Position numbers and translations under genes: made by a program. A stretch of 64,000 nucleotides of DNA. Origin: Cepaea nemoralis (taxonomy: Eukaryota; Mollusca; Gastropoda; Stylommatophora; Helicidae). Below are positions 13,230 through 49,787 of the stretch, in pieces. The stretch spans positions 28,820 to 92,819 of the forward strand of contig JACEFZ010014499.1 of the NCBI GenBank assembly GCA_014155875.1. Direction: 5' to 3'. The notes beneath the pieces were generated by a model, which had not been told where the DNA came from, searched no databases, and saw only the letters and a program-made list of their open reading frames with translations. Each line of letters opens with the position of its first letter. Position 1 is the stretch's first letter.

Positions 13230-15081
13230 TGTGTACATGTGCGTGTATGTGTGTGTATGTGTGTGTATGTGTGTCTATTTGTGTACATGTGTGTGTATGT
13301 GTGTGAATGTGTGTGTATGTATGTGTGTATGTGTGTGTATGTGTGTGTGTATATGTATGTGTGTGTATGTGTGTATGTATTTGTGCGTATATGTTTGTAT
13401 GTGTGTGTATATGTGTGTATGCATGTGTGTATATACGTGTGTATGTATGTGTGTATGCATGTGTATATGTGTGTTAATGTATTTGTGTGTAAATATGTGT
13501 GTATGTGTGTATGTCTGTGTGTGTATGTCTGCGTGTGTATATGTATGTGTGTATGTGTGTATGTATATGAGTGTATATGTATGTGTGTATATGTGTGTAT
13601 ATGTATGTGTGTACGTGTGTGTATGTATGTGTCTATGTGTGTATGTCTGTGTGCGTGTGTGTGTGTGTCTGTGTGTATGTCTGTGTGTATGTCTGTGTGT
13701 ATGTCTGTGTGTATGCCTGTGTGTATATGCATGTGTGTATGTGTGTGTATGTGTGTATGTATGTGTGTGTATGTGTGTATGCATGTGTGTATGTGTGTGT
13801 TTGTGCATATGTGTGTATGTATGTGTATGTATACGTGTGTGTATGTATGTGTGTCTGTGTGTATATGTATGTATGTATGTATGTCTGTGTGTATATGTAT
13901 GTGTGTATATGTGTGTATATGTGTGTATATGTGTGTATGTATGTGTGTGTATGTGTGCGTGTGTATGTGTGCGTGTGTATGTGTGTGTATATGTATGTGT
14001 GCGTATGTGTGTGTGAATATGTATGTATGTGCATGTTTTTGTGTATATGTATGTCTGTGTATGTGTGTGTATGTGTATGTATGTGTATATGTGATTATGT
14101 GTATGTGTGTGTGTTTGTATGTGTGAGTATGTGTATGTGAATGTATGTGTATATGTATGTGTGTATGTGTGTGTATGTCTGTGTGTATTTGTATATATGT
14201 GTATGTGTGTATATGTATGTGTGTGTATGTGTGTGTATATGTAAGTGTGTGTGTATGTGTATGTGTGTGTATGTGTGTATGTATGTGTGTATGTGTGTAT
14301 GTATGTGTGTATGTGTGCGTATGTGTGTATGTGTGTATGTGTGTATATGTAAGTGTGTGTGTGTATGTGTATGTGTGTATGTGTGTATGTATGTGTGTGT
14401 ATGTGTGTGTATGTGTTTGTATGTATGTGTGTATGTGTGCGTATATGTGTGTATTTATGTGTGTGTTTATGTGTGTGTATGTATGTGTGTATATATGTGT
14501 GTATGTGTCTGTATGTGTGTGTATGTATGTGTGTATGTGTGTGTATGTGTGTAAGTGTGTGTGTATGTGTGAGTATGTGTATGTGTGTGTGTGTGTGTTT
14601 GTATGTATGTGTGTATTTTTATATATGCATGTATGTGTGTGTATTCGTGTGTATGTATATGCTTGTATGTATGTGTGTATGTGTTTGTTTGTGTATGTGT
14701 GTATGTGTGTGTATGTATGTGTATGGTGTGTGTATGTGTGTATGTGTGTGTATATGTGTGTCTATGTGTGTGTATGTATGTGTGTGTATGTGTGTGTATG
14801 TATGTATGTATGTGTGTGTATGTGTGAGTATATGTATATGTGTGTATGTATGTGTGTACATGTGTGTGTGTATGTGTGTGTATGTCTATGTGTGTACATG
14901 TGTGTATGTGTGTGTGTGTGTATGTATATGTGTGTATGTGTGTATGTGAGTATATGTATATGTGTGTATCTATGTGTGTGTATGTGTGTACATGTGTGTA
15001 TGTGTGTATGTGTGTACATGTGTGTATGTGTGTATATGTATATGTGTGTATGTGTGTGTATATATGTGTGTGTATGTGAAA
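13230..15081. repeat. TG/TGTA-rich microsatellite, right part
   Basis: About 1.85 kb of imperfect TGTGTATG, TGTATATG and TGTCTG units, with CTGTG-rich sub-arrays near 13640-13720. No stop-free frame here is a credible gene. Confidence 0.95.
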
Positions 15082-15084
15082 CAT

Positions 15085-15935
15085 GTGAAAGTGTACAATT
15101 ATACAATGATAGATTGATTAATTTGGCTGAAAGGGCATTTCTAGGACAAAATATCCAAGGAAAAGTGGAGAGAATATTGGTGGAAATACTTGTAAATGGG
15201 ATATACACTGGCGGCTTCCCATTTAACCTTATGTGATAAAACCCTCTTAAATTAAAATTGGCCACCAATATTGCCATGACAGAAGAGAACTTAAGAAGAA
15301 GATATAAATTAAGGATTGGTAGAGAACCTGGTAGCAATATGGATATGGAGAGAAGAAGAACCAATGGACATTGGTCAGGCAAGAAACAGGTGGGGAAGAA
15401 ATAGAATTAATAATATGCCGAATAGAATTGGAATTCATTCAGTAGTACAGAGTAATAATCAACCTGTACGTGGTAGGGGAGTTCCGATACATTTTCGGCA
15501 TGGCGTAGACACAACAGTACCATGTGCTCCTTTAATCTGTTATATTTGTAATCAGGTCGGACATTTGGCTAAATTTCGTAGGAATCAAGCAATACGATCG
15601 AACTTTCGTAGGGCAGACAAAAGAGATAAATATAGAGATTCAATGGACGATGGTTGGAAGGGAAATGGAAGACCCACTTACTGAATAAGACCCGCGGAAG
15701 TGGGAAGGTTATAGTGGTCCCCAGAGACCGTGAGAGAAATGAACGACCAATACAGGTAAGGACATATCAAAGATTCCAGCGTGAATACGACCGAGGTGAT
15801 CACTCAAGAGTACATAATAATTGTATTAAGGACCCTAGTTCATGTGTGCTGGACATTGGAAAATATAAAATAAGAAGCATGATCGACACATGCACAGAAG
15901 TAAGTGTAATAAAAGAAAGTATCGATAATTTGGCC
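15085..15935 (+). pseudogene. gag - protease fragment of a second LTR retrotransposon family
   Basis: The plus strand shows a gag segment (LYNDRLINLAERAF, VERILVEILVNGI) at 15085-15235. In another frame a zinc-knuckle-like CYICNQVGHLAKFRR follows at 15538-15585; the last Cys of the CX2CX4HX4C pattern is replaced by Arg. A retropepsin-like segment IRSMIDTCTEVSVIKE at 15865-15915 reads DTC where DTG is expected. Several frameshifts and these altered key residues show that the fragment is dead. Sequence and gag style differ from the Gmr1-like family. An SINE3 copy follows directly. Confidence 0.65.
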
Positions 15936-15937
15936 GT

Positions 15938-16142
15938 GTCCAGCGTGTGCCGCGTGGTTACACACCCGCTTCACACGCCAGTGATCCGGGGTTTGTTTCC
16001 GGGTCCGGTCAAGGATATGCACTACTGACGAGCTCTAACGAGAGCGAAACTCGAGTCTATTGCTTCCACATTGACGTGGATAGGCCTTAGGTTCATACCA
16101 GAATACGATCAGCATTGCCAGTAGTAGGTTGTGCTCAATATT
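15938..16142 (+). mobile_element. SINE3 (tRNA-derived), copy 1
   Basis: A tRNA-like head (GCCGCGTGGTTACACACCCGC as A-box region; GGGTTTGTTTCCGGG as degenerate B box) is followed by a body with GAGCGAAACTCGAGTCTA and GAATACGATCAGC. It matches 38130-38345. The promoter boxes are weaker than in copy 2. Confidence 0.7.
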
Positions 16143-17951: not shown

Positions 17952-17956
17952 AGCTT
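17952..17956. repeat. Target-site duplication of Gmr1-like copy 1 (left)
   Basis: AGCTT, repeated exactly at 27388-27392. The sequence on both sides rejoins as the R/SINE1-LINE composite also seen at 62300-62330 and in W copy 1. Confidence 0.95.
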
Positions 17957-18554
17957 TGTCAGCAACCGCTGTCACAGGCATTCTAGGATACTTCTCTCGC
18001 ACCACACAAAAGACTTGCTAGTCGTACGAGAGGAATTGGTTACACATTTTATTGCCACTGGCTCTTTGCATCACATCATTGTACAACAAACAGTCGCTAA
18101 CAAATCACACAAGAATAAATGCACAGAACTTCCTATCACTAGTCGTTTCCTAACCCTATCGCTAATCTATCTACTCGGCTAACGAAACAAGCATCGCTAA
18201 GCGATGTTATCACTCTGAAGTCTGTGTCCCCTCTGATTCTACTCCGCGTGCTGTTTACACAGTACGCGGAAGGACTTGGGGCGCACTACGGCTTTTGCGT
18301 GCGGCCTCATTTAGCACGCTCGAGTAGTGGCCTCTCTTGAGTTACACTCTAGTTTCACGTTGCCGTGATCATGCCGTGACCAGAGTGCTAACTCTCTGGT
18401 TGACACCTCCGTGTCTCATGAGAGAACTAATTACTAGTTCCCCTTCCTATCACCTACCCTGCGCTCATGTAGGGGCACTGAGTTACCTCTAATCTACTTG
18501 AGGTAGACCACTCATTCAGGGTGGTCTTCCTGCTCTATACTTGAGTCTTTGACA
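17957..18554 (-). repeat. 3' LTR of Gmr1-like copy 1
   Basis: 598 bp, TGTCA...TGACA ends. A polyadenylation signal AATAAA on the minus strand lies at 18048-18053 within GGCAATAAAATGT, a block shared with the LTR of copy 2. Differs from the 5' LTR at about ten positions (about 98.3% identity by hand count). Confidence 0.95.
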
Positions 18555-18557
18555 CAC

Positions 18558-18570
18558 ACCCTCCCCTCCT
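18558..18570 (-). promoter_or_regulatory. Polypurine tract (plus-strand primer)
   Basis: On the minus strand AGGAGGGGAGGGT lies three bases upstream of the 3' LTR, the position expected for initiation of second-strand synthesis. The equivalent tract of copy 2 is GGAGGGGTGGG at 49180-49190. Confidence 0.85.
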
Positions 18571-20753
18571 GTGTTGCGTTACAAACTTTGACTCATGGTT
18601 GTGACGCAAGAGGTTTCTAAAAATTAGTGTATCTAATTTTTGTCAAAGACTCCTGATAACTTGGTTCTGGGTATCCTAATAGACCTCTACTGACTATTGT
18701 CACAGTGTAGTATCACTTTACTTGGCTATTGCTGATCGCCACAAACTTGTCAGGTTGGCGTGAGCCCTCTTCTCAATCGCAATATTATATAATTAGAGGT
18801 TTGTCTGAACCGGACCGTTGTCTTATAAGACCTGCCCTCAAATAGTAAATTAACTCACTACCCATACAAAGTTGACTTTCTTAGGGTCAACACATGAATT
18901 GCTTCATGTCCCCCATATAATATTAAACAACCCTTGCCCAAGCTGTGTGCGACAGGCTTTACCTATCTCGCTTCCGCGTGTAAATTTCTCTTTCACTGTT
19001 AAGTTAGTGTTTCGTTGTCTATTGTGTCCCCTGACCCGAAGTTATATCCCTTAGTTCTAAAAAATGTATGTGCTTTACATGTGTGTTTTCCTGGTTGTTT
19101 GCGTGTTTGAATCTACCTACTAATATAATTTAACTTCTAACATGTGTGTCTGTCTATAAATATGTATGCAAGTTAGTTTTCAAGTGCCATAATTCGGTTA
19201 AATGTGGCCACAAACAAGTGTATAACACTAATTCGTGACTACGTTTCCGTCATATGAGACTTAAAATACTCTATCTAAGTTTTACTCTAAACTACACACA
19301 AAACATTCGAGACCGCACATTACAACATTGAAAACAAACGCTTGACGCAGACAAATAATAAAAAGTCGCGCTGAGCGGCAGAAAAAATCTGCTGGCTGCC
19401 TTCACTCTCCCTTGTATATTTACCATTTTCTCTCACTTTCACACTTCTGTCACACATCTTTTATTCTCACAAATATTTAACAACCTTGAAGTGACACTGT
19501 ACAAGTTTAGCTCAGTTTTAAAAGAGTTGAGCTTCATGGCTGTGCTTAAGGTACTGCACGAGTCATGTATTTACAAAATATTTACATGGATGCAATAGGG
19601 TTGATAGATTATACCCTGATATTATTAAACACTATATACTATATAAATACTAATACTAATTCTCTAACTATCTATATTCTATTTTGTTGTACAAAATTAA
19701 TCTAATTTAAGGGAAGTAATCTAACTATCTAAAACATGAAATGATGTGAAATGAGTTATGTATCTTTATGAAATGGGTACAGTGCAATGTAACAAAAATT
19801 CTAAATAATGTTTTTAATGGAAAAAATGAAGAAAGACAGAAAGAAAAAAAATATAATGGATATATTTAATCTACATGGTCTAAATGATGTATGTTCATGT
19901 GTATAATCCTTTTATGCTATAAAGTATAACCTAATTTTAGTCCTAAATGATGAAGTTGTTAAAGTGTTCTTAAAGATGGAATGAAATAAAATGAAATTAA
20001 ATGACTACATGGTGTTGTTCCTATCTTAAGCTATTTATACTAATCTTTGATTCGCTGTCATTTAGTTTACTGTAATATTCTAATCTACGTTTCTAATTTT
20101 TTAAACCACTTTTTAAACCACTTTATCCTACTCTAATTTTATGCTAAGTAAGTGGGTAAATTAACGATTTATCTAAACTAAAATAAAAAATCTATTCTAT
20201 TTGCTAAATCTAATCTAACTCTATATTAAAGTAACTAATCTAACTATAATTTACCACTATTTTAAAACCGTTATATTACATATCACAATAAGTATATATA
20301 CATGATGTGTCTTTACCTCAGGTTAGTGGTCGCCATAACGTATAGAAATTGCTTTCGTTGGCATAGTTTATATATACACACTTATCCTGGGTATGCTATC
20401 TACACTACACAGTCATACTTGTGTCCTATGGGTATTCTTACACTCGTTGAGTCTGCTGGTGTCGTAGACAAGTATCTTCGTGTCTGCTATTTCACAATGT
20501 TCTACACTGTTCTGATATGAGTAACACAGGTGATTCACCGGAGCACAAATGGAGCATAGTAAGTACCGAGCTGTCTATGTACACACGGTGATTTCCTTGT
20601 TCTTGGCGCCTAGTTGTCATTCTGCTGTCTACGGACACATGGTAGTTCACTGTTCTTAGCACACAGTTCTGATCCTGATGTCTATGTACACAATAGTATA
20701 TTCTACATAGGATACGTTAAGTGTATAGTAAATGAACATTTCTTAAACTACCT
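18571..20753 (-). other. Non-coding 3' region of Gmr1-like copy 1
   Basis: About 2.2 kb of AT-rich sequence between the end of RNase H and the polypurine tract. No envelope-like or other sense frame is present. Copy 2 keeps a region of the same size and recognisable sequence (46991-49194), so this long 3' region belongs to the family. Confidence 0.75.
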
Positions 20754-20790
20754 ATTCGTGTGGAATATCAGGTATTTCTACCTCAGATGG

Positions 20791-22020
20791 TCAACTAAGG
20801 GTATCAGCAAGGATGTTGTCCCTACCCTTAATATGCTCTATACTAAAAGTATAATTCTGTAATATTAACGACCACCTGTAGATGCGGTCATTCCGATGTA
20901 CCCCACTTTGTATGACCGTGATCGGGGAGTTGTCAGTCTGGACTACAAAGTGATTATTCGCCAGAAATCGATGCAACTTCCTCACCGAATAGATGACGCT
21001 TAGGGCTTCCAACTCTGATATGGAATATCTGAACTCAGCCGGTGTGATCTTGCGGCTCACGTAGCAAATCAGATGGAAGATGCCATCATAAAATTGGCCT
21101 AGTACTGCAGCGATGGAAATCCTGCTGGCATCTGTCCTAAGATAATAAACGAGCCTAGGATTAGGCAAGCGGAGGATTAATACATTACTAAATAGGATTT
21201 TCAATTTAGACAATGCAGAAATTAATAATGCATCTTTGACATCTAATTTTACTGATGCTTTTAAAACATTTGAAAATACACTTGTAATTTTAGCTATGTT
21301 CGTTGTGAACTTGCTATAATAATTTACTAAACCCAAAAGGCTCCTGACCTGCTTTTTTGTTGTAGGCATGGTCAGGTTCATAATTGTGGTAATAATTCTA
21401 TTGTCAGTTTTCAGTTGTCCTTTTGAAATGACATGACCCAAAAAATCAATTTCTTGTAGGCCCAATTCGACTTTGCTCGGTTTGACAGTGAGACCGAAGA
21501 GTCGCAACCTATCGAAGACATGTCTTAGTTTCAGTAAGTGTGTTGTCCAGTCCTCTGTATGGACACAAATATCATCTATATAGGTCACCGTATTCGTCAC
21601 TCCATGTAGTAGATCTCTAGTTAAGCGTACGAAAGTGGCAGGAGCATTACGAAGTCCGAAAGGAAGAAATCGCCACTCGTAAAGGCCTAGAGGTGTTGAG
21701 AAAGCAGTAAGATGGATAGATTGAGTTTGCATAGGGACCTGCCAGTATCCCTTAGTTAGGTCTAATTTAGAAAAGATTTTGGAGGTGGACATATCCAGAA
21801 TAAGATCTTCGCAGGAAGGAATTGGTTCTGCGTCGATCTTAGTGACGTTGTTGAGTTTTCTATAGTCCACACAAAGACGAATGGTGGAGTCTTTTTTCTT
21901 GACCAGGACGATTGGAAAGGAGTACTCAGATATAGATTTTTGAATGATTCCACTAGCTTCTAAATTCAGAATTTCCTTATTTAGATTTTCTCTATAGCTA
22001 AGTGGGATAGAGTACGGCAT
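20791..22020 (-). CDS. pol: Reverse transcriptase - RNase H of Gmr1-like copy 1
   Basis: 409 codons in one frame. The RT is Ty3/gypsy-type: VDYRKLNNVT (51-60), LDLTKGYWQVP with the first catalytic Asp (87), LPFGLRNAPATF (119-130), TYIDD with the catalytic pair (149-150), IDFLGHVIS (191-199) and VRSLLGLVNYY (225-235). The RNase H follows with Asp297 (TDAS), Glu336 or Glu338, Asp363 (QTDN) and Asp406 (ADTLS). The frame ends in TGA where a CGA Arg codon would fit, so the original end was probably about 12 codons later. It is in frame with the integrase part, separated only by a TAG at 22036-22038, and lies downstream of integrase rather than upstream. Confidence 0.95.
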   Translation of the reverse strand: MPYSIPLSYRENLNKEILNLEASGIIQKSISEYSFPIVLVKKKDSTIRLCVDYRKLNNVTKIDAEPIPSCEDLILDMSTSKIFSKLDLTKGYWQVPMQTQSIHLTAFSTPLGLYEWRFLPFGLRNAPATFVRLTRDLLHGVTNTVTYIDDICVHTEDWTTHLLKLRHVFDRLRLFGLTVKPSKVELGLQEIDFLGHVISKGQLKTDNRIITTIMNLTMPTTKKQVRSLLGLVNYYSKFTTNIAKITSVFSNVLKASVKLDVKDALLISALSKLKILFSNVLILRLPNPRLVYYLRTDASRISIAAVLGQFYDGIFHLICYVSRKITPAEFRYSISELEALSVIYSVRKLHRFLANNHFVVQTDNSPITVIQSGVHRNDRIYRWSLILQNYTFSIEHIKGRDNILADTLS

Positions 22021-22035
22021 GCATTTGATAGGCTT

Positions 22036-22908
22036 CTAGTCCGAAAGAAGGATGGAGTGCTCGATCCTGTCCGTCCTACCTGGAATGTCGGAAAATATGT
22101 CCTTATATTCAGTCACTAATTCTATGATCTGTCGTCGTTGTTCTTCTGTCAGTCCCGTTTCTAATCGTATACAATCTAATGTAGCAGTCTTGTCCACAAT
22201 TGGAACGGGTAGTTCCATCCCGTCGTCGTCTACCTGATTCAGTACGGTTGTGGTGCTAAGTGCGTTTTCTGTAATCTCACTAAGTGTATGCATCTCGTCG
22301 GATTTGCCAGTCTCGCTAACTAGTGTAGTTGCGTTGTGTACGTCTGTCGTCTCATCCATAGGTGTGGGTGCATTATGTTCGTCTGTCTCTAATTGTGTCT
22401 CTTGTCGTGAAAAGTAGGGTTTCAACATGTTGATATGAAATATCTTTAAGTGTCCGTTTATCGATATTTCATAATCGACATCCGAAATTTTTCGTACCAC
22501 TTTGAATGGCCCTTGCCATGAGATCAATAATAAATTCCGTTTGTCTGGAAGTAACAGAAGTATGTCTTGATCTGGTTCAAGATTAATTGTTCTCGCACCT
22601 TTGTTTGCGTATTGGCGGTAGATTTGACCCTTCCTCTCCAAAGCTGCCTTAGCTATGATACACGATTTCATGATTTTATCTCGTGTTTCTGTCACCATTT
22701 CATAAGGTGTTTTTGGGGTTGGAATTTCAATCGAATTAGTTATTACCTGATGATAAATGGTTAGGGGTCCACGTGGGTTAGCCCCGTATACTAATTCAAA
22801 CGGTGACAAACTCGTGCTTGAATGGGGAATCTCCCGATAGGCGAACAGCACTGTTGGTAACAGTGTATCCCAATCAGCTGGGTTTTCTGCTGTCACCTTA
22901 GCCAGCAT
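22036..22908 (-). pseudogene. pol: Integrase C-terminal part and linker to RT, Gmr1-like copy 1
   Basis: Begins with the integrase C-terminal region (MLAKVTAENPADWDTLLP, SLSPFELVYGANPRGPL) and then an SH3-like or GPY/F-type segment (WQGPFKVVRKISDVDYEI, KIFHINMLKPYF). About 110 acidic, low-complexity residues follow. The end (IIELVTEYKDIFSDIPGRTDRIEH) is the leader normally found at the N-terminus of gypsy RT. This fusion proves that integrase and RT were translated in the order IN-RT. The upstream half (22925-24358) is in another frame because of a one-base change in a seven-A run near 22930. The part ends in a TAG in frame with RT. Confidence 0.9.
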
Positions 22909-22924
22909 GTGCTTAAGGTCTCCG

Positions 22925-24358
22925 TTAATTTTTTTCTACTATCCCATTGCTGGTTGGATGATAAGCTGTTGTAAAATGCTGTTTAATCCCTAACATTTTC
23001 GTAAGGGCTTGCGTTGCAGCCGATATAAATTGAGTTCCACGATCGCATAAGATGGTACGTGGAAATCCGAATCGTGAGAACAAATGTAGAAATACATTGG
23101 CAACGTCTTTGGAGGTGATGTATTTCAAAGCTACTGCCTCAACCCACCTTGAACATAGGTATACCATTGTTAAGATGAAGCGATTTCCTTTGCTGGACAC
23201 CTGGTTCAGGGGTCCAACAATATCTACCGCCACACTCTCAAATGGCCTAGAGGCCAGTGTTGAAGGTTGCACTTCAGCTGTAGGATGTTTACCCTTACGT
23301 ACTAGTTGTTGACAGACATTACACGAACGACAAAATAATTTTATATCATTACAAAAACCTGGCCAATAAAAATGAGTCTGAATTCTGGCCCTGGTCTTGT
23401 CGTATGCAAGGTGACCAGCAAACGGTGACTCATGTGCAATCTTTAGCACAGTTTGGCGGTGTTGTACAGGTAACACCGTTTGCTGAATCTCATGGTTACC
23501 AGTTGTATAATACCTAGTAAGGATACCATTATTAAGTCTAAAGAACCATGATGCGTTTTTTGTCACTTTGGCTTTTTCTTTCAAAAGCTTTAGATATGGA
23601 GACACACTAGGATCAGCTTTCTGCTGTTCTATGAATTTTTGTCTGGTGGTATCATCCGGGCTAGTTGGTGATAGCAAAAGTAATCTCTCATCTTGTAGTG
23701 CGTCTTGATGTTTCATAGTGTCTGCTCTTGTTGTTGCATTGGCTGCATTTAATTTTTCCCATGCAGCTATATCTTCGTTAGTACAATGTTTCAATCGGGG
23801 TAAGCATCCCAAAATTAAATCAGTACAAGGGTTATCTAAAATCGCACATGTAAAGGTACCAGAAAGGAAAGGAGTGTTAATACGGGCTTTGGCCAAAGGG
23901 TAAATTTCAATGTTACCCGAAAATGTTCGGCATTTGACAGAGTCACCTGTATAATCATTTGGGGTCACCAGTTCCTTTCTAAGACCAATAAGGGTGCTGC
24001 CGCTTTCTAGCAAACATTGGCATGGTCTGTCGTTGACCATTGCATTGTGGAACACTAAATTGCCTCTGGAGGCTAATGCTGCATTTACACTCTCAGTTGA
24101 GAATGGTACTGTATGTATACATTCTAATTTTCCGTCTGCATGAAATTGGTGACATCGATCACAACTGTCAAAGCTTAATATATCGTTTACACAACAAACA
24201 TCTTCAGATTGGTTAAAAGGTAATTCATTTTCAACTTCACACTCAGTCTCACTACCACTATCAGAAGATGTATCAATCAAAATAGCATTGTTGGCCTTCA
24301 TTCTTTGGCGGCCCAGGCACTTATTTGAATAGTGCCCGTAGCTAGAACAGAAAAGCAT
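22925..24358 (-). pseudogene. pol: Protease and integrase (zinc-binding and catalytic core), Gmr1-like copy 1
   Basis: 477 codons. It starts inside the second gag zinc knuckle. The retropepsin-like segment QCLLESGSTLIGLR (114-127) has Glu118 where copy 2 has the expected catalytic Asp. The integrase zinc-binding module follows: His309, His316, Cys346, Cys349, with HFYWPG (329-334). The DDE core has Asp379 (VAVDIVGPL), Asp439 (CDRGTQF) and Glu475 (NGIVE), spaced D-X59-D-X35-E, as in gypsy-type integrases. Integrase directly follows protease, with no RT between them. The frame stops at a TAA created by a homopolymer slip; the protein continues in 22908-22036. Confidence 0.93.
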
Positions 24359-25248
24359 TTGACTGCACGCCTGTATGCAGTTCTTTTGTTTTGTTGCTTC
24401 TTAATGACAATCTCAAGATGTGTCGGATAGTTTGGTGATTTATCACACATAGAATAAGTATCATGAAAAAGTTGACAATAGACACATTTCGACACTTTCT
24501 TATCTTTCTTGTCGACTCTATGAAATGGTTTTTTGTTGCTCTGATAGTTTTTAGGTTGGTCCTTCACAAAAGAAACTATTTCAGAGTCGTTATTTGATGT
24601 CTTGAAAATATCTCTATTTGAGGAAAAATATGCAGAGCCTTTCTTTTCAAATTGTTCTATGGTCTCAATGTCTGACTGCTGCAGGAATTTAGCGAAAGGA
24701 GATGGTATTGTGGATATGACTTTATCCATGGCTATTAAATTTTTAAGTTTGTCAAAATCCTTTCCTATTTTTGATGCACTAAGCCATCTATTTAGTACGC
24801 TTTGTACATTTGAGACATAATCGATAAAGGTCTCGCTTGGCTTAGGTTTTAAATTGGAAAACTGTACTTGATACCCAGGGGCAACAAGTAAGAAATGTTG
24901 CATTATCCTATCGTGGATGTACTGATAGTTAGATCTAAGATCAGTTGGTATAGATTCTATTACTTTAAGGGGCTCTCCACTTAAGTTCTTCATGTAGATC
25001 ATGGCCCACATATCGATTGGTACTTGGTGGTATTTAAATTGGTATTCGACATTTTCTGTCCAGGCTGATATGGAATCTTCTCTACAAAATGGTTTGATAA
25101 TGTTTTTGTACTTATTGAATTTATTTTCTTCTTGCTGACTTTTTAGTTTTGTAGCAGAGATCTCTAAGTGTGAATCTACATCCATACCTTTCATCTTTAA
25201 CTGTGTCTCTGATTCTACCTGTATTTGTTTTTCTTTTACTCTTGCCAT
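24298..25248 (-). pseudogene. gag: gag (capsid and nucleocapsid), Gmr1-like copy 1
   Basis: 316 codons. Residues 45-205 are a retrotransposon capsid: IIKPFCREDSISAWTENVEYQF, then at 127-205 a segment resembling the vertebrate SCAN domain (VLNRWL...FDKLKNLIAMDKVISTIP...FLQQSDIETIEQF). A first zinc knuckle CVYCQLFHDTYSMC (CX2CX3HX5C) comes next. A second, CX2CX4HX4C, straddles the switch to the protease frame near 24330. SCAN domains are known to derive from gag of Gmr1-like elements, so this fits the pol order. The frame is continuous with the upstream coiled-coil part apart from one TAA at 25273-25275. Confidence 0.9.
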
Positions 25249-25272
25249 TTCATCTATCTCTTTTTGCTTTAA

Positions 25273-25626
25273 TTATTTCTCCTGATCCAATTGTTTTTGT
25301 TTTAATTCTAATTCTTTCTGTTTAATTTCCTTATCATGTTCTAACTGTTTTTGCTTAATCTCTTTATCTTGTTCTATTTGTTTTTGCTTAATCTCTTTAT
25401 CTTGTTCTATTTGCTTTTGTTTTGTTATCTCCGCTAGTTCTACAATCTCTTTCTGATGTTGTCTTTCTTGTTCTCCAATCTCCTTTTGATGTTGTCTTTC
25501 TCGTGCACGTTCATCTCTCTCAGCATCTTTTGCTTCCCTAAACTTTTGAACAGCATATTGCTCTAAGTCCTTTCCTGTGTATTCTAATTCCTTGCCTGCT
25601 TTTATGAAATCAGCTAAAGTTGCCAT
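25273..25626 (-). pseudogene. gag: gag N-terminal coiled coil, Gmr1-like copy 1
   Basis: 117 codons from an ATG at 25626, the first ATG of the element's coding region. Residues 1-35 are mixed; 36-117 are a Lys/Glu/Gln-rich predicted coiled coil built from repeats of about 11 residues (IEQDKEIKQKQ). It ends in a TAA directly in frame with the capsid part downstream, so both are one gag broken by a single nonsense change. Confidence 0.85.
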
Positions 25627-26760
25627 GTTGTTGGGAGATTAGCTAGATTTGATAGGCACTTATTTATATCTACTTATTTGTATTAGATATGTTATGATTT
25701 TAAATCCCTGAGTACAAGAAATTGTACTCTTAGTTTATAACCTGAAGAACAGATCACCAAAAATATGCTAATACATCACACGCTGAAAAAGAGATGCATT
25801 ATTAATCATATTGCATGCAAAATCAATTGGGTATACTCATCTTAAATTTCCAGATCACTCATGTACACTCATTTGGCACTTCAAGTTCAATCGTTTGCCA
25901 ATACCACACACAGCTCGAGTTATGCTTATGCTCAGCTGTTGTTCTCCCTGTTTATCAAGAGCATCAACAATTAACTACTTGTAAACAATATATAAATGTA
26001 GACAATTTTTACAATTACAAGCCACAGGAAAATATGATGTGGTTTAATTAATATTAAATGTCACTGTCCTGTCTTCGTTCTAACGTCTTTTGCCTTCACT
26101 AACTCTAACTGTTTAATCTATGGAAGTGTTGTGCAGACTGCGTCTCATTTGCATAGCCAAAGTAGTGCCATCGCGACGGCAAGACAGAGAAAAAATATAT
26201 AAATAAATAAATAAATGCTTTAAAATAAATATAAAGGTGATAATATTGTTCAAATAAATAAATATATTCAATAAATAACTAATATAAACAAATAATATTT
26301 GATATAAGTCAACGATTCAGGCGAGCAGCCGCTTTGCGATTGTAAACAATCAGTCGCTGACTGCAAATGGCGTACCACAGCTGTTTGTCAGTCGCGATAC
26401 GTCAGAGGCGCAGCGCTATTTTTAGATTGGAAAAATCGATTTTGTTCTCGGCTCAGTTTTGTGTATCGCTCCGCCATGAATCATATTTGACAACTACTGG
26501 TAAATAAATAAGTAATTACATAAATAAATGATACAAAAGTATAACAATAATACTTACAAATTAGAAGAAAACATATTCATAAGCACAAAATAATTCAGTA
26601 AGCATAAATAAACATAACTTGGTCACGATGGGCACAGCTCGCACTTTGCTCTGTCTGCACACGCCATTGTCACTAACGTAAATTAAACCCTGTGATTATC
26701 TAGCCGTAATACTAATTTAGAGCCGTGGGTGAGTGTTTTAGCTTGAACGATTGTCCAAGC
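25627..26760 (-). other. 5' leader of Gmr1-like copy 1
   Basis: About 1.1 kb of AT-rich sequence between the primer-binding site and the gag ATG. It includes (AAAT)n runs near 26190-26290 and no conserved frame. Presumably it holds packaging signals; none can be identified by eye. Confidence 0.6.
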
Positions 26761-26776
26761 CACACTTCTGACACCA
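26761..26776 (-). promoter_or_regulatory. Primer-binding site (tRNA-Leu-like)
   Basis: On the minus strand TGGTGTCAGAAGTGTG lies 13 bases inside the 5' LTR. TGG pairs with a tRNA CCA end, and GTGTCAG is typical of sites complementary to leucine tRNA acceptor stems. The gap to the LTR is longer than usual and the tRNA assignment is inferred. Confidence 0.65.
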
Positions 26777-26789
26777 CTTTATCCTAGCC

Positions 26790-27387
26790 TGTCAGCAACC
26801 GCTGTCACAGGCATTCTAGGATACTTCTCTCGCACCACACAAAAGACTTGCTAGTCATACGAGAGGAATTGGTTACACATTTTATTGCCACTGGCTCTTT
26901 GCATCACATCATTGTACAACAAACAGTCGCTAACAAATCACACAAGAATAAATGCACAGAACTTCCTATCACTAGTCGTTTCTTAACCCTATCGCTAATC
27001 TATCTACTCGGCTAACGAAACAAGCATCGCTAAGCGATGTTATCACTCTGAAGTCTGTGTCCCCTCTGATTCTACTCAGCGTGCTGTTTACACAGTACGC
27101 GGAAGGACTTGGGGCGCACTACGGCTTTTGCGTGCGACCTCATTTAGCACGCTCGAGTAGTGGCCTCTCTTGAGTTACACTCTAGTTTCACGTTGCCGTG
27201 ATCATGCCGTGACCAGAGTGTTAACTCTCTGGTTGACACCTCCGTGTCTCATGAGAGAACTAATTACTAGTTCCCCTTCCTATCACCTACCCTGTCCTCA
27301 TGTAGGGACACTGAGTTACCTCTAATCTACTTGAGGTAGACCACTCATTCAGGGTGGTCTTCCTCCTCTATACTTGAGTTTTTGACA
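26790..27387 (-). repeat. 5' LTR of Gmr1-like copy 1
   Basis: 598 bp, same length as the 3' LTR, followed on the plus strand by AGCTT. The AATAAA signal is conserved at the equivalent position. Confidence 0.95.
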
Positions 27388-27625
27388 AGCTTCACCGCAG
27401 ACAAGCTAGGAATCATCTAATGACAGGAGAAATGAGATTTCTGAGGAGAATGCAAACAATGCCATGGATGGACAGAAAAACGAATGAGAAAGTTCCTTCA
27501 AGGAACAATTGAAAAAAAAAAAACCTTAAAAGGAATAGAAAAATTAAACACAAACAGTCCAGTTTTGTTTACGAGTCATGGTACGATCAGAAATAAACTG
27601 GAAAATATAGTGACCACTAGGAAGT
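27388..27625 (+). pseudogene. LINE 3' fragment (continuation of the R/SINE1 composite)
   Basis: Homologous to 62317-62545 and to the reverse complement of 6725-7010 (GCAGACAAGCTAG, GAGAAATGAGATTTCTGAGGAG, GAATGCAAACAATGCCATGG). Stops throughout. It directly continues the sequence left of the Gmr1-like element. Confidence 0.7.
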
Positions 27626-29760: not shown

Positions 29761-29836
29761 ATTTTAATTCTGAGTCCCATTCTAAGTCCCATACTAAGTC
29801 CCATTCTAATTCCCATTTTAATTATGTTGTCCCATA

Positions 29837-30632: not shown

Positions 30633-30850
30633 TTATAGAGAACTAACACCTGCACTTCTATATATTTATGTGTGAGTGACCTAACAACTGCATTTGTATA
30701 TATTTATGTGTTTGAGAACTAACAGATGCACCATATATTTATGTATGAGTGAATTAACACCAGAATTGTTATATATTTATGAATGAGAGAACTAACAGAT
30801 GTACCATATATTTATGAATGAAAGAACTAAGAGCTGATATATCTGATAAG
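30633..30850. repeat. Degenerate tandem repeat of about 45 bp
   Basis: About five units of GAGAACTAACA..TGCAC...TATATATTTATG(T/A)(G/A)TGAG. It directly follows the 16-bp array and has no coding signal. Confidence 0.8.
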
Positions 30851-36214: not shown

Positions 36215-36284
36215 CTTCGCTTATAACATTGTGCAACTTTCCACGCTCATTTACCGTTCTAATATTCCATGTACATCCTATGAT

Positions 36285-42563: not shown

Positions 42564-42603
42564 TTTATGAGGAAAGACTCTACTGGTTATGGATACAGCC
42601 AAC

Positions 42604-43953: not shown

Positions 43954-44262
43954 TGTCAAAGACTCGACCGCATCCCCTCCGCCAGGAAGAGCAGTCAATC
44001 TTGAAGAGGCCAGGAGGTGATACGGTGCCCGAGGTAAGGGCAGGGGAGATGAGGTAATGGGAGATGGTTATCCATTCCCTCATGAGACACGCAGGCGTTG
44101 TTCAGAGAGTTAGCACTCTAATCACGATAGCATCACGCCTCGTGGTAGCCACGGAGAAGTTGAGTATCCACTCAACATACCACGTCTGCGATCAGCGTGC
44201 CATGTGAGGCAACACGCACCAAGGTCAAGGTCGATCCGCGTGGTGTGTGACGACGGGATGAT
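43954..44262 (+). repeat. 5' LTR of Gmr1-like copy 2, 3'-truncated
   Basis: Matches 49195-49502 with about two differences (GTCGATCC versus GTCAAGCC), then ends at a deletion joined to gag. Its left half shares only TGTCAAAGACTC, CTCATGAGACACG and AGAGAGTTAGCACTCT with the LTR of copy 1. Confidence 0.93.
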
Positions 44263-44268
44263 AGGATT

Positions 44269-44850
44269 ATGCAGCACTTTTTACTTGATGCCCCTGGGTA
44301 TCAGGTTCAGTTCTCAAATTTAAAACCTAAACCTAGTGAAACGTTTATTGATTATGTTTCAAATGTGCAGAGTGTACTAAACAGGTGGCTTAAAGCAGCT
44401 AACATAGGAAAAGACTTTGATAGATTAAAAAACTTAATAGCTATGGATAAGGTTATATCCACTATACCTTCTCCTTTTGCTAAATTTTTGCAGCAGTCAG
44501 ACATTGAGAACATCAAGCAGTTTGAAAAAAAAGGCTCAGCATATTTTTCTTCTAACAGAGATATTTTTAGGATTTCAAATGACTCTGAAATAGTTTCCTT
44601 TGTGAAAGACCAACCAAAAAACTATCAGAGTAACAGAAAACCTTTTCAGAAATATGACAAGAAAGACAGAAAAGTGTCAAAATGTATTTATTGTCAACTT
44701 ATGCACGACACTTATTCTATGTGCGACAAATCGCCAAATTATCCGGCGCATCTTGAAAATGTGATCAAGAAGCAGCAAAATAAAAGATCGGCATACAGGC
44801 GTGCGATCAAATGTTTTTTTTTGTTCCAGCTATGGCCATTATTCAAATAA
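44269..44850 (+). pseudogene. gag: gag (capsid end and zinc knuckles), Gmr1-like copy 2
   Basis: 193 codons beginning inside the SCAN-like capsid segment (MQHFLLDAPGYQVQFSNLKP, FDRLKNLIAMDKVISTIP). It continues through the first zinc knuckle CIYCQLMHDTYSMC to KCFF, where the frame runs off in a nine-T tract (44813-44822). Identity with gag of copy 1 is high by eye. The N-terminal coiled coil and first capsid half are deleted. Confidence 0.9.
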
Positions 44851-45739
44851 GTGCCTTGGCCGCCAACGTATGAAAGCTAACAATGCTATCTTGATTGATA
44901 CCTCTTCAGATAGTGGTAGTGAGGATGAGTGTGAAGTTGAAAATGTATTACCTTTCAAGGAGTCTGAAGATGTCTGTTGTGTGAACGATGTGTTAAGCTT
45001 TGACAATTGTGACCAATGTTACCAATTTCATGCAGACGGAAAATTAGAATGTGGACATACAGTACCATGCTCAACTGAGAGTGTAACTGCAGCAATAGCC
45101 TCCAGAGGCAAGTTAGTGTTCCACAATGCAATGGTCAACGACAAACCATGCCAATGTTTGCTGGACAGCGGCAGTACCCTTATTGGTCTTAGAAAGGATC
45201 TAGTGAGTCCAGGTGATTATACAGGCGACTCTGTCAAATGCCGAACCTTTTCGGGTAACGTTGAAATTTACCCTTTGGCCAAAGCCCATATTAACACTCC
45301 TTTCCTTTCGGGTACCTTTACTTGTGCAATACTTGACAACCCTTGTACTGATTTAATTTTGGGTTCCTTACCCCAACTGAAACATTGTACTAGTGATGAA
45401 ATAGTTGCATGGGAGAAATTAAATGCAGCTAATGCAACTACTAGAGCAGACACTGTAAAACATCAAGACACACTACAAGATGGGAGACTACTGGTGCATT
45501 CTCCAACTGGCACAGATGATACCAACAGACAGAAATTTATAGAACAGCAGAAAGCTGATCCTAGTGTGTCTCCATATTTAAAATTAATGAAAGAAAGATC
45601 TAAAGTGACCAAAAATGCCTCATGGTTCCTTAAACCTAATAATGGCTTTCTTACGAGATATTTTACATCTGAGAACCATGAGAATCAGCAAACGGTGAAA
45701 CCTGTACAACACCGCTTAACTGCAAAAACCTGCACATGA
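44801..45739 (+). pseudogene. pol: Protease and start of integrase region, Gmr1-like copy 2
   Basis: This frame takes over at the second zinc knuckle (SSYGHYSNKCLGRQRMK). The protease-like segment QCLLDSGSTLIGLR retains the catalytic Asp lost in copy 1. The linker between protease and integrase is collinear with copy 1 to about 45720, then the frame is lost within the integrase zinc-binding module. Confidence 0.88.
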
Positions 45740-46310
45740 GTCACCGCTTGCTGGTCACCTGGCAAAAGACAAAACCAGGCCTAGATTCCAGGCTCATGTT
45801 CATTGGCCAGAGTTTTGGAATGAGATTAAATTATTTTGTCGTAATGTATTTTCTTGTAATGTCTGTAAACAATTAGTACATAAGTTTAAGGGTAGACATC
45901 CTACAGCTGAAGTACTACCTTCTACTCTGACTTCTAGACCTGTAAGAGGGAGGGTCAAATTTACCAATACACAAACAAGGGTGCTTGAACAATCGATGGT
46001 AAACCAGATCAAAACATGCGTCGGTTACTTCCAGACAAGCAAAATGGCAAGGACCATGCAAGGTGTTACGTGACATTTCCAATGTTGACTATGGAATATC
46101 GATAAACAGACACTTAAAGATATTCCATGTCAACATGTTAAAACTTTACTTTTCACAAGACACATAAGTAGGGACAGACGAACATAGTACATCCACACCT
46201 AGTAATCAGACGACAGACATACACAATGCAACTACACTAGTTAGCGAGACTGGCAAATCCGACAAGATGCATACATTTAGTGAGCTTACAGGATACGCAT
46301 GATATATGTT
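45740..46310 (+). pseudogene. pol: Integrase remnants, Gmr1-like copy 2
   Basis: Shows WPEFWNEIKLFC and CNVCKQLV of the zinc-binding module (45800-45880), then jumps over most of the catalytic core (deletion after about 45945) to C-terminal words (LLPDKQNGK, then HVKTLLFTRH near 46125-46165, and TTDIHNATTLVSETGKSDK near 46210-46270). Several stops and frame changes. Confidence 0.8.
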
Positions 46311-46329
46311 TCCATACGGATGACTGGAC

Positions 46330-46990
46330 AACACACTGACTGAAACGAAGACATGTCTGTGACAGATTGCGACTCTTCGGTCTCACTGTCAAACCGAGCA
46401 AAGTCAAATTAAGCCTAAAAGAAATTCATTTTTGGGTCATGTCATTTCTCAAGGTCAACTAAAGACTGACCTGAAAATTAGTACCAAAATTATGAATCTG
46501 ACCATGTCTAACAGAAAGAAACAGGTCAGAAGGCTTTTGGGATTAGTAAATTACTCAGAAATTATAATTCTTTATTCCAATGTTTTAAAAGCATTTGTAA
46601 AATGAAATGTCAAAGATGCATTATTAATTTCTGCATTGTCAAAAATGAAAATCCTTTTTTGTAATATTCCAATCCTCCGCTTGCCTAATCCTAGGCTCGT
46701 TTATTATTCTAGGACAGATGCCAGCAGTACTAGGCCAATTTTTTGAGGGCATCTTCCACCCGAGTTCCATCCAGAGATTCCATATCACAGTTGCAACCCT
46801 AAGCGTCATCTATGCGGTGAGAAAGCTCCATCGAGTTCTGACGGATGTTCACTGCATTGTCCAGACCGACAACTCCCCGATCACGGTCATACAGAGTGGT
46901 GTGCATCAAAATGACCGGATATACAGGTGGTCACTAATTTTACCATCTGGGGTAGAAATACCTGAAATACCACATATAAATGTAGAGTGA
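46330..46990 (+). pseudogene. pol: RT and RNase H remnants, Gmr1-like copy 2
   Basis: Begins after the RT catalytic box, with ATLRSHCQT-type frame debris and then FLGHVISQGQLKTD (46430-46480), KKQVRRLLGLVNYS and KDALLISALSKMKILF. The RNase H follows: RTDAS with frameshift, then LSVIYAVRKLHRVL, QTDNSPITVIQSGVHQNDRIYRWSL (46800-46940). RT lies downstream of integrase here too. Confidence 0.85.
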
Positions 46991-49194
46991 TAGTTAGTAC
47001 ATGAATAGATTATATTATTCTATGTAAAATAGGTTACATATACATCGACATTATGTGCTTAATCATGTACCAAGAACAGTGAACTATCATGTGTCCGTAG
47101 ACATCAAGTGAAGAACTGTGCTGCAAAACGTAGATATCACCGTGTGAAATAGGACAGCTCATTACCAACTAAGCTCCATTCCGGTGTATCATTTGTGTGA
47201 AGCGCAGAGAACATTGTCAGAACAATGCTTAATTACAGACACGAAAAGACTGAGCTACGACACCAGCGAACTCTACACGTGCACTACCGATAGAACACTA
47301 GTATGACTGTGCAATGTATTTCAGATACCCAGGCAAAGTGTGTATATATATTATGCCTATAAAACCAATGTACAATCATGAAGGCAACAACTTACCTGAG
47401 GTAGCTGAATACCATGTATATAAACTTATTGTGATATGTAAGATAACATTTTAAGATGGTGATAAATTAGAGGTAGGTTAGGAAATATAATAGTTCTCAT
47501 TTATTTTAATAGTGTAGGTAGTACAGTAATTAACCCATTAGAATTAAATTAGAATATTAATTTAGACGTAAAAATAGTTAATTACAAGCTAAATTAAAAG
47601 TTTGATAGGAATAGTACCATTTAGTTTGATATATTTCACTTAGCTTCATTTCGGTTCAGTTCATTCCATCTTAATGAAACCATACCACCTATCAAATATT
47701 ACCATTCAGTAATATCATCATTTTACATCAGAATAGGATAAAAAGATTAGATAAGTGAACATACATCATTTACACCATTTAGATTAAGAATATCACTCAT
47801 ATAATTCCTTTGTGCATTTAAAAACATTAGTTAGTAGAGTGTTAGAAAATTACATAATTTGTGTTCACATCATCCATGTAATTAAGGTACATAACTCACG
47901 TCACATTAATTACATTTAAATAGTTAGATTACATCCCTTAGATTAGACAAACATAACGATTAATATAAACATATCATATAATTAACATGACAAAAATTTA
48001 GTTAACACATTAAATACATATTTATAGAATTAATATTATTATGTTAGGATTTAGAGTGGTAGTTAGTATAATATAATGGATGATGAGACCAAGGGGATAC
48101 ACAATCAACCCTTTCTCGTCCATGTAAATATAGTGTAAATACATGACTCGTGCAGCGATTTTCGCACAGTCATTGGGCTCAACTATCTCAAACTGAGCCA
48201 AACCTGTACAGTGTCACTCCAAGGTTTTTAAATAATCGGAAGGATGAGTGGGGAAGGATAAAAGATGTGTGACAGAATTAAGGATGAAAGAAGTGTGACA
48301 GAAGTGTGAAAGTGAGAGCGAATGGAAAATAGACGGGAGAGAGTGAGATCAGTCAGCAAATTCTTCTGCTGCCTGGTGCGACTTTTAATGTTTTAGTGTT
48401 GGTTTTCGTTATTGAGAATGTGTTAGTGTGAATGTGTGTCTGTAAGATCGTTTAGAACTTAGATGAGTGTATTTTGGGTTTCATAACAAGGGAATGTAGT
48501 CACGAATTAGTGTTATACACCTGTTTGTGGCCACATTTAACCAAGTTATGACACTTAAAAAACTAACATACATACACATAGGAGGGAGAAACATAGGTTA
48601 GAAGTTAGATTAGTAGATTAATTACATCCAAACACACAAACAACCAGAAAAACAAACAGATAAATTACATACATTTTTTCTAGATCAAAGGGAGATAACT
48701 TCGGGTCAGGGGACATAATAGACAACGAAACACTAACTTAACAGTGAAATGAAACTTTACACGCGGAAGCGTAATAGGTAAATCCTGTCGCACACACCTT
48801 GTGTAATGGTTGTTAAATATTATATAGGGAACATGAAGCAATTCATGTGTTGACCCTAAGAAAGTCAACTTTGTATGGGTAGTAAGTTAATTTACTATGT
48901 GAGGGCAGGTCTTATAAGACAACGGTCCGGTTCAGACATACCTCTAATGAATATAATATTGCATGTGAGAAGAGGGCTCACGCCAACCAGTCAAGTTTGT
49001 GGCGATTGCCAGTAGCCAAGTAGAGTTTTGCTACACTGTGACAATAATCAGTAGAAGTCTATTAGAGTGCCCAAAGCCAGGTTATCTAGAGTCTTTGACA
49101 AAAAAAATTAGAGACATTAAATTTTTTTTAGAAACATATTTCGTCACAACCAATGAGTGAAAGTTGATGACGCAACACAGGAGGGGTGGGTGTG
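46991..49194 (+). other. Non-coding 3' region of Gmr1-like copy 2
   Basis: AT-rich, 2.2 kb, recognisably the counterpart of 18571-20753 (for example TGGTAGTAAGTTAATTTACTATG and CTTATAAGACAACGGTCCGGTTCAGAC). The polypurine tract GGAGGGGTGGG at 49180-49190 precedes the LTR. Confidence 0.8.
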
Positions 49195-49787
49195 TGTCAA
49201 AGACTCGACCGCATCCCCTCCGCCAGGAAGAGCAGTCAATCTTGAAGAGGCCAGGAGGTGATACGGTGCCCGAGGTAAGGGCAGGGGAGATGAGGTAATG
49301 GGAGATGGTTATCCATTCCCTCATGAGACACGCAGGCGTTGTTCAGAGAGTTAGCACTCTAATCACGATAGCATCACGCCTCGTGGTAGCCACGGAGAAG
49401 TTGAGTATCCACTCAACATACCACGTCTGCGATCAGCGTGCCATGTGAGGCAACACGCACCAAGGTCAAGGTCAAGCCGCGTGGTGTGTGACGACGGGAT
49501 GAAAGAACGTCAGACGGGAGGACAGGACTTGTAGTGTGCACCTCGTTAGAGTAGCGATAGGGGTTTTGTGTTTAACTAAATAGATAGAGAGTTAGCATAG
49601 GCATTAGCAACTAGTGATAGATAATTTCTGTGGCTTTATGTTGTGTGTTTACTAGCGACTGTTACCTGCGTGTAGCGAGCCAACGGCAATAAAATGTACC
49701 AGTTATTTTCCTCGCACACGACTTGCAAGTTTTCTTGTTTGGTGTGGGAGAAGTATCCGATAGTGCCTGTCAGTTGAGTTATTGACA
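49195..49787 (+). repeat. 3' LTR of Gmr1-like copy 2
   Basis: 593 bp, TGTCAAAG...ATTGACA. The polyadenylation signal AATAAA is at 49688-49693 in the shared GGCAATAAAATGT block. The right third resembles the LTR of copy 1; most of the left (U3) part does not. Confidence 0.95.

What the first reader, a model, noticed from the sequence alone, without database searches (positions are those of the whole stretch)
20750..25626. Ty3/gypsy-type retrotransposon with integrase upstream of reverse transcriptase (Gmr1-like order)
In transcript order copy 1 reads gag, protease, HHCC plus DDE integrase (24358-22036), then RT and RNase H (22020-20791). The integrase C-terminal part and the RT leader share one frame, separated by a single TAG. 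The RT (VDYRKLN, GYWQVP, YIDD) and the D-X59-D-X35-E integrase are gypsy-type, yet the order is that of Ty1/copia. This arrangement is the hallmark of the Gmr1-like clade, first recognised in deuterostomes. If the host is a mollusc or other protostome, this extends the clade. Copy 2 shows the same order, so it is not a local rearrangement.
Basis: partly seen in the sequence, partly recalled or inferred. Interest (0 to 1): 0.9.

Follow-up and report, generated by a model that had tools for sequence, protein, structure and literature searches.

The report
Mollusc retrotransposon with integrase first
This is a worn-out copy of a jumping element in a mollusc genome whose integrase lies before its reverse transcriptase, an order already known from the Gmr1-like group; elsewhere in the same genome many copies have lost just the integrase core and probably borrow that enzyme from complete copies.

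Summary
Copy 1 (minus strand) reads gag, protease, integrase, reverse transcriptase, RNase H. It is a whole LTR element, 17957-27387, about twice the reported span: 598-bp LTRs, 98.3% identical, 5-bp target duplication, no env found. A database relative carries protease tail, integrase and start of RT in one unbroken frame. RT and integrase trees place it with integrase-first elements (sea-turtle ones in the RT tree) against conventional Ty3/gypsy. So Gmr1-like fits, although no labelled Gmr1 reference could be added.

Extension to protostomes is not new: crustaceans (2013) and an annelid (2021) were reported. Molluscan-type haemocyanin in the 3.47-Gb host genome points to a mollusc; the 2018 mollusc survey does not name Gmr1 among its clades.

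The unexpected part lies outside the window. Of the 30 genome copies nearest by RT, 12 are complete and 18 share an in-frame loss of the integrase zinc finger and catalytic core. In three pairs compared the two forms are mostly 96-100% alike elsewhere; they are mixed in the RT tree, and the integrase-less protease block is about 21% diverged, apparently older than the split of the window's two subfamilies. I infer integrase supplied in trans, with recombination.

The parts
17957..27387 (-). copy 1, whole LTR element (9,431 bp)
   Evidence: LTR pair by blastn, ends and target duplication read
26790..27387 (-). 5' LTR, TG...CA, 598 bp
   Evidence: 10 differences in 598 from the 3' LTR
17957..18554 (-). 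3' LTR, 598 bp
27388..27392 (.). target site duplication AAGCT, upstream copy
17952..17956 (.). target site duplication AAGCT, downstream copy
26760..26776 (-). primer-binding-site-like TGG stretch, starting 13 nt after the 5' LTR; tRNA not assigned
   Evidence: sequence; interpretation inferred
18559..18570 (-). polypurine tract before the 3' LTR
   Evidence: similar purine stretch in copy 2
24298..25638 (-). gag, two frames split by a stop; N-terminal repeats that look like coiled coil (by eye), C-terminal zinc knuckles (by Cys-His spacing)
   Evidence: weak Pfam SCAN match E 0.035
22925..24400 (-). zinc knuckle end, protease (LLESGS, active-site Asp replaced), integrase HHCC and DDE core
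   Evidence: protease only weak in Pfam (E 0.14)
22036..22935 (-). integrase C-terminal GPF domain and RT leader, ended by TAG
   Evidence: 87% identical to P0121, where the frame runs on
20791..22035 (-). RT and RNase H, last coding part
18555..20790 (-). long 3' region without coding signal; no env found
   Evidence: no minus-strand frame of 80 aa or more, no clear 3-base rhythm between copies 1 and 2
22606..23756 (-). stretch present here but replaced by 58 nt in the integrase-less form elsewhere in the genome
   Evidence: L045 against window
43954..49787 (+). copy 2, relative from another subfamily with internal deletions; target duplication CATAT; LTR parts 99% identical over 311 bp

Best explanation
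Copy 1 is a decayed member of a young, high-copy Ty3/gypsy LTR retrotransposon family of a mollusc that belongs to the integrase-first (Gmr1-like) clade. In complete copies one gag-pol polyprotein is encoded in the order gag, protease, integrase, RT, RNase H; its RNA is copied inside particles and inserted with a 5-bp duplication (mechanism inferred from the anatomy and from what is established for the superfamily). The same family also circulates in a second form in which about 364 codons net, holding the integrase zinc finger and DDE core, are missing in frame while gag, protease, integrase C-terminal tail, RT and RNase H remain. I infer that this form makes particles and cDNA but uses integrase supplied in trans by complete copies packed in the same particles, and that template switching in mixed particles keeps exchanging most of what lies outside the protease-integrase cassette. 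Shown: anatomy, order, clade, both forms, mosaic pattern, young LTRs. Inferred: trans supply, co-packaging, template switching.
For: Order and domains. LTRs, target duplication, polypurine tract. Protease tail-integrase-start of RT in one frame in P0121. Trees: RT 99/99 for 30 rows (22 integrase-first, 7 of unread order, window) against 26 RT-first rows; integrase 99/87 for 14 rows against 33. Order in controls: 119 of 119 new proteins RT-first; of 28 loci, 19 have both domains, 18 RT-first and 1 integrase-first. Genome: 101 RT matches scored, 96 of 101 without a stop inside; 150 integrase-core matches and 150 matches to the integrase-less junction peptide, both at the scoring cap, hence lower bounds. 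Two forms: 12 and 18 of 30; the same junction in the 16 of 18 where it was read. Protease match start to RT start is 972 nt in 5 of 5 integrase-less copies and 2,064 nt in 4 of 11 complete ones (2,063-2,068 in five more; one partial match, one shorter), so about 1,092 nt or 364 codons less (differences). Mosaic. Target duplications in 3 of 5 integrase-less and 8 of 11 complete copies. Mollusc host: 81 haemocyanin beta-sandwich matches, 0 of 14 control genomes.
Against: No labelled Gmr1 sequence was in the trees. With fewer comparators the RT tree did not hold integrase-first rows together (p-AU 0.318, so not rejected either). For 19 of the 22 integrase-first RT rows only the integrase C-terminal motif upstream of RT was read, not the whole integrase. 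The SCAN-like gag signal is weak in both window copies and absent at E up to 1 in two other copies. The 30 copies were picked by RT likeness to copy 1, so 18:12 is no census. No expression, particle or integration data. 2 of 5 integrase-less copies show no target duplication by my test. Many copies of both forms have broken frames: 6 of 18 and 4 of 11 are open over the 490 codons upstream of RT.
Confidence: 0.8

Rival explanations
1. The integrase-first order in the window is a local rearrangement or assembly chimera of an ordinary Ty3/gypsy element.
For: Copy 1 is broken in several places and copy 2 has large deletions.
Against: 12 of 30 genome copies, window copy included, have the integrase core directly upstream of RT and 0 of 30 have it within 1,500 bases downstream of RNase H; 11 of 11 fetched complete loci read gag-protease-integrase-RT; P0121 runs from protease tail into RT in one frame.
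Confidence: 0.01
2. An independent, second origin of the integrase-first order, not the Gmr1-like clade.
For: No named Gmr1 reference was available; the RT tree did not unite integrase-first rows.
Against: One clade with a vertebrate (sea turtle) integrase-first element (99/99), and one clade in the integrase tree.
Confidence: 0.1
3. The integrase-less copies insert without help from complete copies: through integrase of another gypsy family, or by homologous recombination with older copies.
For: The first looks met 53,272 and 40,583 candidates, nearly all unscored, so other integrases may be abundant; 2 of 5 integrase-less copies lack a visible target duplication.
Against: 5-bp target duplications in 3 of 5; LTRs and most of the body 96-100% identical to complete copies in three pairs, and RT-RNase H identical between one integrase-less and one complete copy, pointing to a shared replication cycle.
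Confidence: 0.15
4. The integrase-less form is a mere splicing or deletion product arising again and again from complete copies.
For: Integrase-less copies are scattered in the RT tree; one clade is rejected (p-AU 5.6e-10).
Against: One shared junction in the 16 of 18 loci where it was read and a protease block about 21% diverged from that of complete copies: recurrent loss would keep the local protease.
Confidence: 0.04

Closest known systems
Gmr1-like Ty3/gypsy elements (cod Gmr1; Goodwin and Poulter 2002, known here only through citing papers)
   Same: Protease-integrase-RT-RNase H order with gypsy-type enzymes; pol ends at RNase H; RT falls with a vertebrate integrase-first element
   Different: Protostome (mollusc) host; 9.4 kb, against 6.1-6.5 kb for four puffer-fish Gmr families (PMC11117352, passage read); long 3' region without coding signal; accompanied by an integrase-less form
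Crustacean and annelid Gmr1-like elements (GyRex4 and others, PMC3587641; LGF3, PMC8220671; passages read)
   Same: Protostome Gmr1-like members
   Different: Other phyla; sequences not available here for comparison
Ty1/copia elements
   Same: Domain order only
   Different: RT and integrase are Ty3/gypsy type (Pfam RVT_1; nearest solved RT and integrase are Ty3's)
Plant autonomous/non-autonomous LTR pairs (wheat RLG_Wilma with RLG_Sabrina and RLG_WHAM, PMC9744471; sorghum CR2, PMC4079200; passages read)
   Same: A form lacking enzymes persists beside a complete partner; recombination between forms is described for the sorghum centromeric elements
   Different: There RT and integrase are both absent or truncated; here only the integrase core is gone, in frame, with protease, RT and RNase H retained

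Membership tests
Ty3/gypsy (Metaviridae) LTR retrotransposon | Ty3/gypsy-type RT and RNase H | tested here: met
   Pfam RVT_1, RT_RNaseH; nearest solved chain Ty3 RT, E 1.9e-65
Ty3/gypsy (Metaviridae) LTR retrotransposon | HHCC and DDE integrase with C-terminal GPY/F-type domain | tested here: met
   Ty3 integrase E 5.2e-19
Ty3/gypsy (Metaviridae) LTR retrotransposon | LTRs TG...CA, 4-6 bp target duplication, polypurine tract | tested here: met
   8 of 11 complete genome copies with a target duplication, two of the eight in simple repeats
Gmr1-like clade | integrase between protease and RT | tested here: met
   12 of 30 copies with the core upstream of RT, 18 of 30 without a core, 0 of 30 with it downstream
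Gmr1-like clade | RT and integrase group with other integrase-first elements, vertebrate ones included | tested here: met
   RT 99/99 with a sea-turtle element inside; integrase 99/87, no named vertebrate row in that one
Gmr1-like clade | groups with the named cod or Ciona references | not tested
   no such sequence came up in the calls
Gmr1-like clade | SCAN-like capsid C-terminus (reported in over half of frog Gmr elements only, PMC4131045 passage) | tested here: inconclusive
   E 0.035 and 0.011 in window copies, 1.8e-4 in relative L002, none at E up to 1 in two other genome copies; all below the curated cut-off; gag fold prediction unusable, pLDDT 41.8
Ty1/copia | copia-type RT (RVT_2) | tested here: not met
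   no RVT_2 match at E up to 0.01; RVT_1 instead
Non-autonomous LTR partner moved in trans | lacks an essential enzyme yet has young copies, and shares termini with a complete partner | tested here: met
   no integrase core upstream in 18 of 30; 5 of 5 fetched have LTRs 98.9-100% identical; complete against integrase-less nearly identical outside the cassette in three pairs
Non-autonomous LTR partner moved in trans | integrase really supplied in trans | not testable with these tools
   needs biochemical or cellular data

The most novel reading that the evidence does not exclude
The integrase-less protease cassette is a long-lived cheater allele inside a retrotransposon population. It split from the complete cassette before the two subfamilies in this window did (protease divergence 0.21-0.24 against 0.10 between copies 1 and 2), keeps a constrained protease, and has been carried onto the present backbone by template switching while complete copies pay for the integrase. 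The integrase-first order would make this possible, because the integrase sits between protease and RT and can be cut out in frame without touching RT.
Probability: 0.4. Interest if true: 0.75.

Novelty: new variant of a known kind. Interest (0 to 1): 0.55.

Why it matters
The domain order itself is known. The reading is useful because it puts a mollusc, a phylum for which the listings showed no Gmr1-like report, into a clade once thought deuterostome (with the caveat that an unnamed MolGy clade may be the same lineage), and because the host genome offers a natural test of integrase sharing: two forms of one family that differ mainly in a protease-integrase cassette, each with at least 150 matches and with young LTRs in the copies examined. 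That lets one ask, by observation, how parasites of retrotransposons arise and persist, and whether domain order changes which defective forms can spread.

Tried and rejected
Led nowhere: viral-contig scans (0, 1 and 0 loci); the one locus, L001, proved RT-first. Gag fold prediction (mean pLDDT 41.8), so no fold search was made. Gag against solved structures (nothing). Rfam on the window (nothing). tRNA scan (nothing), so the primer tRNA is unnamed. Goodwin and Poulter 2002 and Emerson and Thomas 2011 are not held.

Rejected: local rearrangement (genome copies), copia membership (RVT_1, not RVT_2), an env gene in the 3' region (no frame, no codon rhythm), Troyka (TG..CA ends and 5-bp duplication against CG..CG and 3 bp in PMC12440569, passages), a programmed gag-pol frameshift (copies 1 and 2 leave frame in opposite directions at the same place, worked out from the frames, while other copies read straight through there: decay).

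Full report
What was checked. The minus strand of the window carries five successive frames: gag in two pieces (25273-25638, 24298-25272), zinc knuckle-protease-integrase (22925-24400), integrase C-terminus plus RT leader (22036-22935) and RT-RNase H (20791-22035). Pfam gives Integrase_H2C2, rve, Integrase_p58_C, RVT_1 and RT_RNaseH in transcript order with strong E-values. In copy 1 the frame ends right after RNase H; in the other 29 genome copies read it runs on for 4 to 29 codons, 13 in 23 of 29.

The element is larger than stated. Two 598-bp LTRs lie at 26790-27387 and 17957-18554, 98.3% identical (10 differences), with TG..CA ends, a 5-bp target duplication AAGCT, a polypurine tract before the 3' LTR and a TGG-type primer-site-like stretch 13 nt after the 5' LTR. 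The 2.2 kb between RNase H and the 3' LTR holds no long frame and shows no clear coding rhythm between the two window copies, so I see no env. Copy 2 is a second insertion, 43954-49787 on the plus strand, with its own duplication CATAT and LTR parts 99% identical over 311 bp, but with internal deletions; its remaining pieces are colinear.

Not a local rearrangement. A database protein, P0121 (ENA, contig of 9,069 bases), reads protease tail, HHCC, DDE core, C-terminal domain and the start of RT in one unbroken frame, 87% identical over integrase tail and leader and 95% over the first 128 residues of RT. In one search P0122 reads protease, integrase, RT, and P0127 integrase, RT, RNase H. In the RT search (3,636 hits, 120 listed) the GPY/F motif lies upstream of RT in 16 of 16 listed proteins whose RT core starts at residue 270 or later; the core motif was found in 108 of 120, and in none of these does GPY/F lie after RNase H. 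The length limit of that search disfavours full RT-first polyproteins, so a control search was made from an RT-first protein: 119 of 119 new proteins are RT-first. Among 28 DNA loci from other sources 19 had both domains found: 18 RT-first, 1 integrase-first (L002, a 1,476-residue frame in a contig filed under a bacterial symbiont).

Trees. A first RT tree (48 rows) put the window with two land-snail proteins, Candidula and Bradybaena (100/100; taxonomy), but did not hold all integrase-first rows together; the AU test did not reject that they belong together (p 0.318). In a second tree (59 rows) 16 diverse RT-first loci were added and the earlier RT-first rows halved to 9 plus Ty3. There 22 integrase-first rows, 7 named rows of unread order and the window form one side of a branch with 99/99 support against 26 RT-first rows; a sea-turtle integrase-first element (P0088, order by Pfam) lies inside. 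Of the 22, 19 are called integrase-first from the GPY/F motif upstream of RT alone, P0088 from Pfam, and P0127 and L002 from the integrase itself. Three further rows of unread order (L004, L017, L021) lie outside. Seven loci with under 330 residues of RT, and L028 without an RT match, were left out. In the integrase tree (47 rows) 14 rows (6 integrase-first, 7 of unread order, the window) form one side of a branch, 99/87, against 33 RT-first rows; P0134 and P0136 were too short to enter. Most RT-first rows there come from one lineage (relatives of P0137). No named Gmr1 sequence was available.

Host. The window lies in a 3,472,891,610-base assembly of 26,579 contigs. Pfam PF14830, the haemocyanin beta-sandwich domain (molluscan type; recalled), gives 81 matches there, many clustered on a few contigs, and none in 14 control genomes. 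The two nearest named RT relatives are land snails. I take the host to be a mollusc; the species is not known.

Literature. Passages read: PMC3587641 says crustacean elements were the first Gmr1-like ones in protostomes; PMC8220671 places an annelid family in Gmr1; PMC8556966 calls Gmr1 present in several phyla; PMC6238403 surveyed molluscs and does not name Gmr1 among the clades found, but its 16 MolGy clades were named from RT/RNase H and the passages give no domain order, so one of them could be this lineage. The listings of searches showed no paper on Gmr1-like elements in molluscs; each shows only part of its hits, and the library holds open-licence papers only. Passages of PMC3424704, PMC4592553, PMC3406341 and PMC4131045 link the vertebrate SCAN domain to Gmr1-like gag. 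The gag of the window copies has a weak SCAN match (E 0.035 and 0.011), the integrase-first relative L002 a better one (1.8e-4), and two other copies of the family none at E up to 1: suggestive at most.

The genome family. 101 RT matches were scored out of 53,272 first-look candidates, 95-97% identical to copy 1 except the window's own, 96 of 101 without an internal stop; open frames reach 1,629 residues. The best 30 became loci. Mean pairwise RT-RNase H divergence is 1.7%; copy 1 differs from the others by 3.2% on average. Of the 30, 12 (window copy included) have the integrase core directly upstream of RT and 0 have it within 1,500 bases downstream. One of the 11 complete copies fetched has a single frame of 1,624 residues from gag to RNase H.

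The second form. The other 18 share a different upstream sequence: protease (DSGS in the copies translated), a short linker, then the integrase C-terminal tail, RT and RNase H. Against copy 1 the stretch 23756-22606 is replaced by 58 nt (L045). Measured on genome copies, protease match start to RT start is 972 nt in 5 of 5 integrase-less copies and 2,064 nt in 4 of 11 complete ones, 2,063-2,068 in five more, with one partial match and one shorter copy: a loss of 1,092 nt or 364 codons, in frame. The junction was read in 16 of 18 and is the same, small changes aside. The genome gives 150 scored matches to the integrase core and 150 to the peptide across the integrase-less junction, covering at least 161 of its 163 residues at 94-100% identity; both numbers are the cap of the tool, so no ratio follows.

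Mosaic. In three pairs of one complete and one integrase-less copy, LTR, leader, gag, RT-RNase H and 3' region are mostly 96-100% identical (lowest 300-column blocks 85 and 90%, in the leader of one pair), while identity falls to 91-93% and then 80-82% around the protease before the integrase gap. RT-RNase H of one integrase-less copy (L057) and one complete copy (L053) is identical over 1,242 bases. In the RT-RNase H tree of the 30 copies the integrase-less ones are mixed with complete ones; one clade is rejected (p-AU 5.6e-10). Protease-region divergence: complete against integrase-less 0.211, copy 2 against integrase-less 0.239, copy 1 against copy 2 0.098; gag: complete against integrase-less 0.035, copy 1 against copy 2 0.173 (7 of 11 complete and 5 of 5 fetched integrase-less copies used). 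So the protease of the integrase-less form appears older than the split of the two window subfamilies, while its gag is of copy 1's subfamily; capture from another family is not excluded. Protease-block differences fall 24, 21, 52 on codon positions with 42 synonymous and 34 non-synonymous codons (L065 and L073); two other pairs are alike (25, 19, 56 and 26, 19, 49), and a fourth, L064 and L070, is out of frame upstream and uninformative (61, 58, 86): constrained, not neutral. Among the integrase-less copies open over 490 codons upstream of RT (6 of 18) differences fall 202, 119, 340 on codon positions, among the complete ones (4 of 11) 42, 18, 138.

Age and insertion. LTR identity is 98.4-99.7% in 11 complete and 98.9-100% in 5 integrase-less copies (in L065 and L069 the repeat found runs beyond the LTR). 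Target duplications were found in 8 of 11 and 3 of 5 (two of the eight lie in a G run and a TA run). No absolute dates are given, for want of a rate.

Interpretation. The finding as given is a decayed copy of a known kind in a phylum for which I found no report. The new point is the pair of forms. Trans supply of integrase and exchange by template switching fit best, by analogy with plant pairs and with the recombination seen in Onsen bursts (PMC5668417, passages), but neither is shown here. In the plant passages read the non-autonomous partners lack RT as well as integrase; the listings of searches (15 of 432, 15 of 20 and 30 of 56 papers shown) held no case of an integrase-core-only, in-frame loss that I recognised from titles and abstract openings. 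Those searches are narrow.

Noticed in passing
window 41958-42605, minus strand: An open frame of 215 residues that looks like a ubiquitin-conjugating enzyme (UBE2S-like, recognised by eye), without introns, perhaps a retrocopy.
   Followed up: no
window 12051-15078 and 36282-37407: Long arrays rich in TG and GTGGGG with strong strand skew.
   Followed up: no
window 29836-30633: About 50 copies of a 16-bp unit, 91% matches, open in several frames.
   Followed up: no
window 50823-51600 and 58869-59660: Inverted pair of pieces that look like non-LTR retrotransposon (by eye), 93-97% complementary, 7.3-8.6 kb between the arms.
   Followed up: no
window 15636-16028, plus strand: Frame with an aspartic-protease-like stretch (IDTCTE), perhaps a remnant of another LTR element (by eye).
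   Followed up: no
window 44260-46943 against copy 1: Between copies 1 and 2 gag differences sit on third codon positions (72 of 99), those in RT-RNase H much less (42 of 92): gag stayed constrained longer than pol in at least one lineage.
   Followed up: partly
L002, 845-5275: Contig filed under a bacterial symbiont (Thiodubiliella) carries a whole integrase-first gag-pol frame: most likely host DNA in a bacterial bin (origin inferred).
   Followed up: partly
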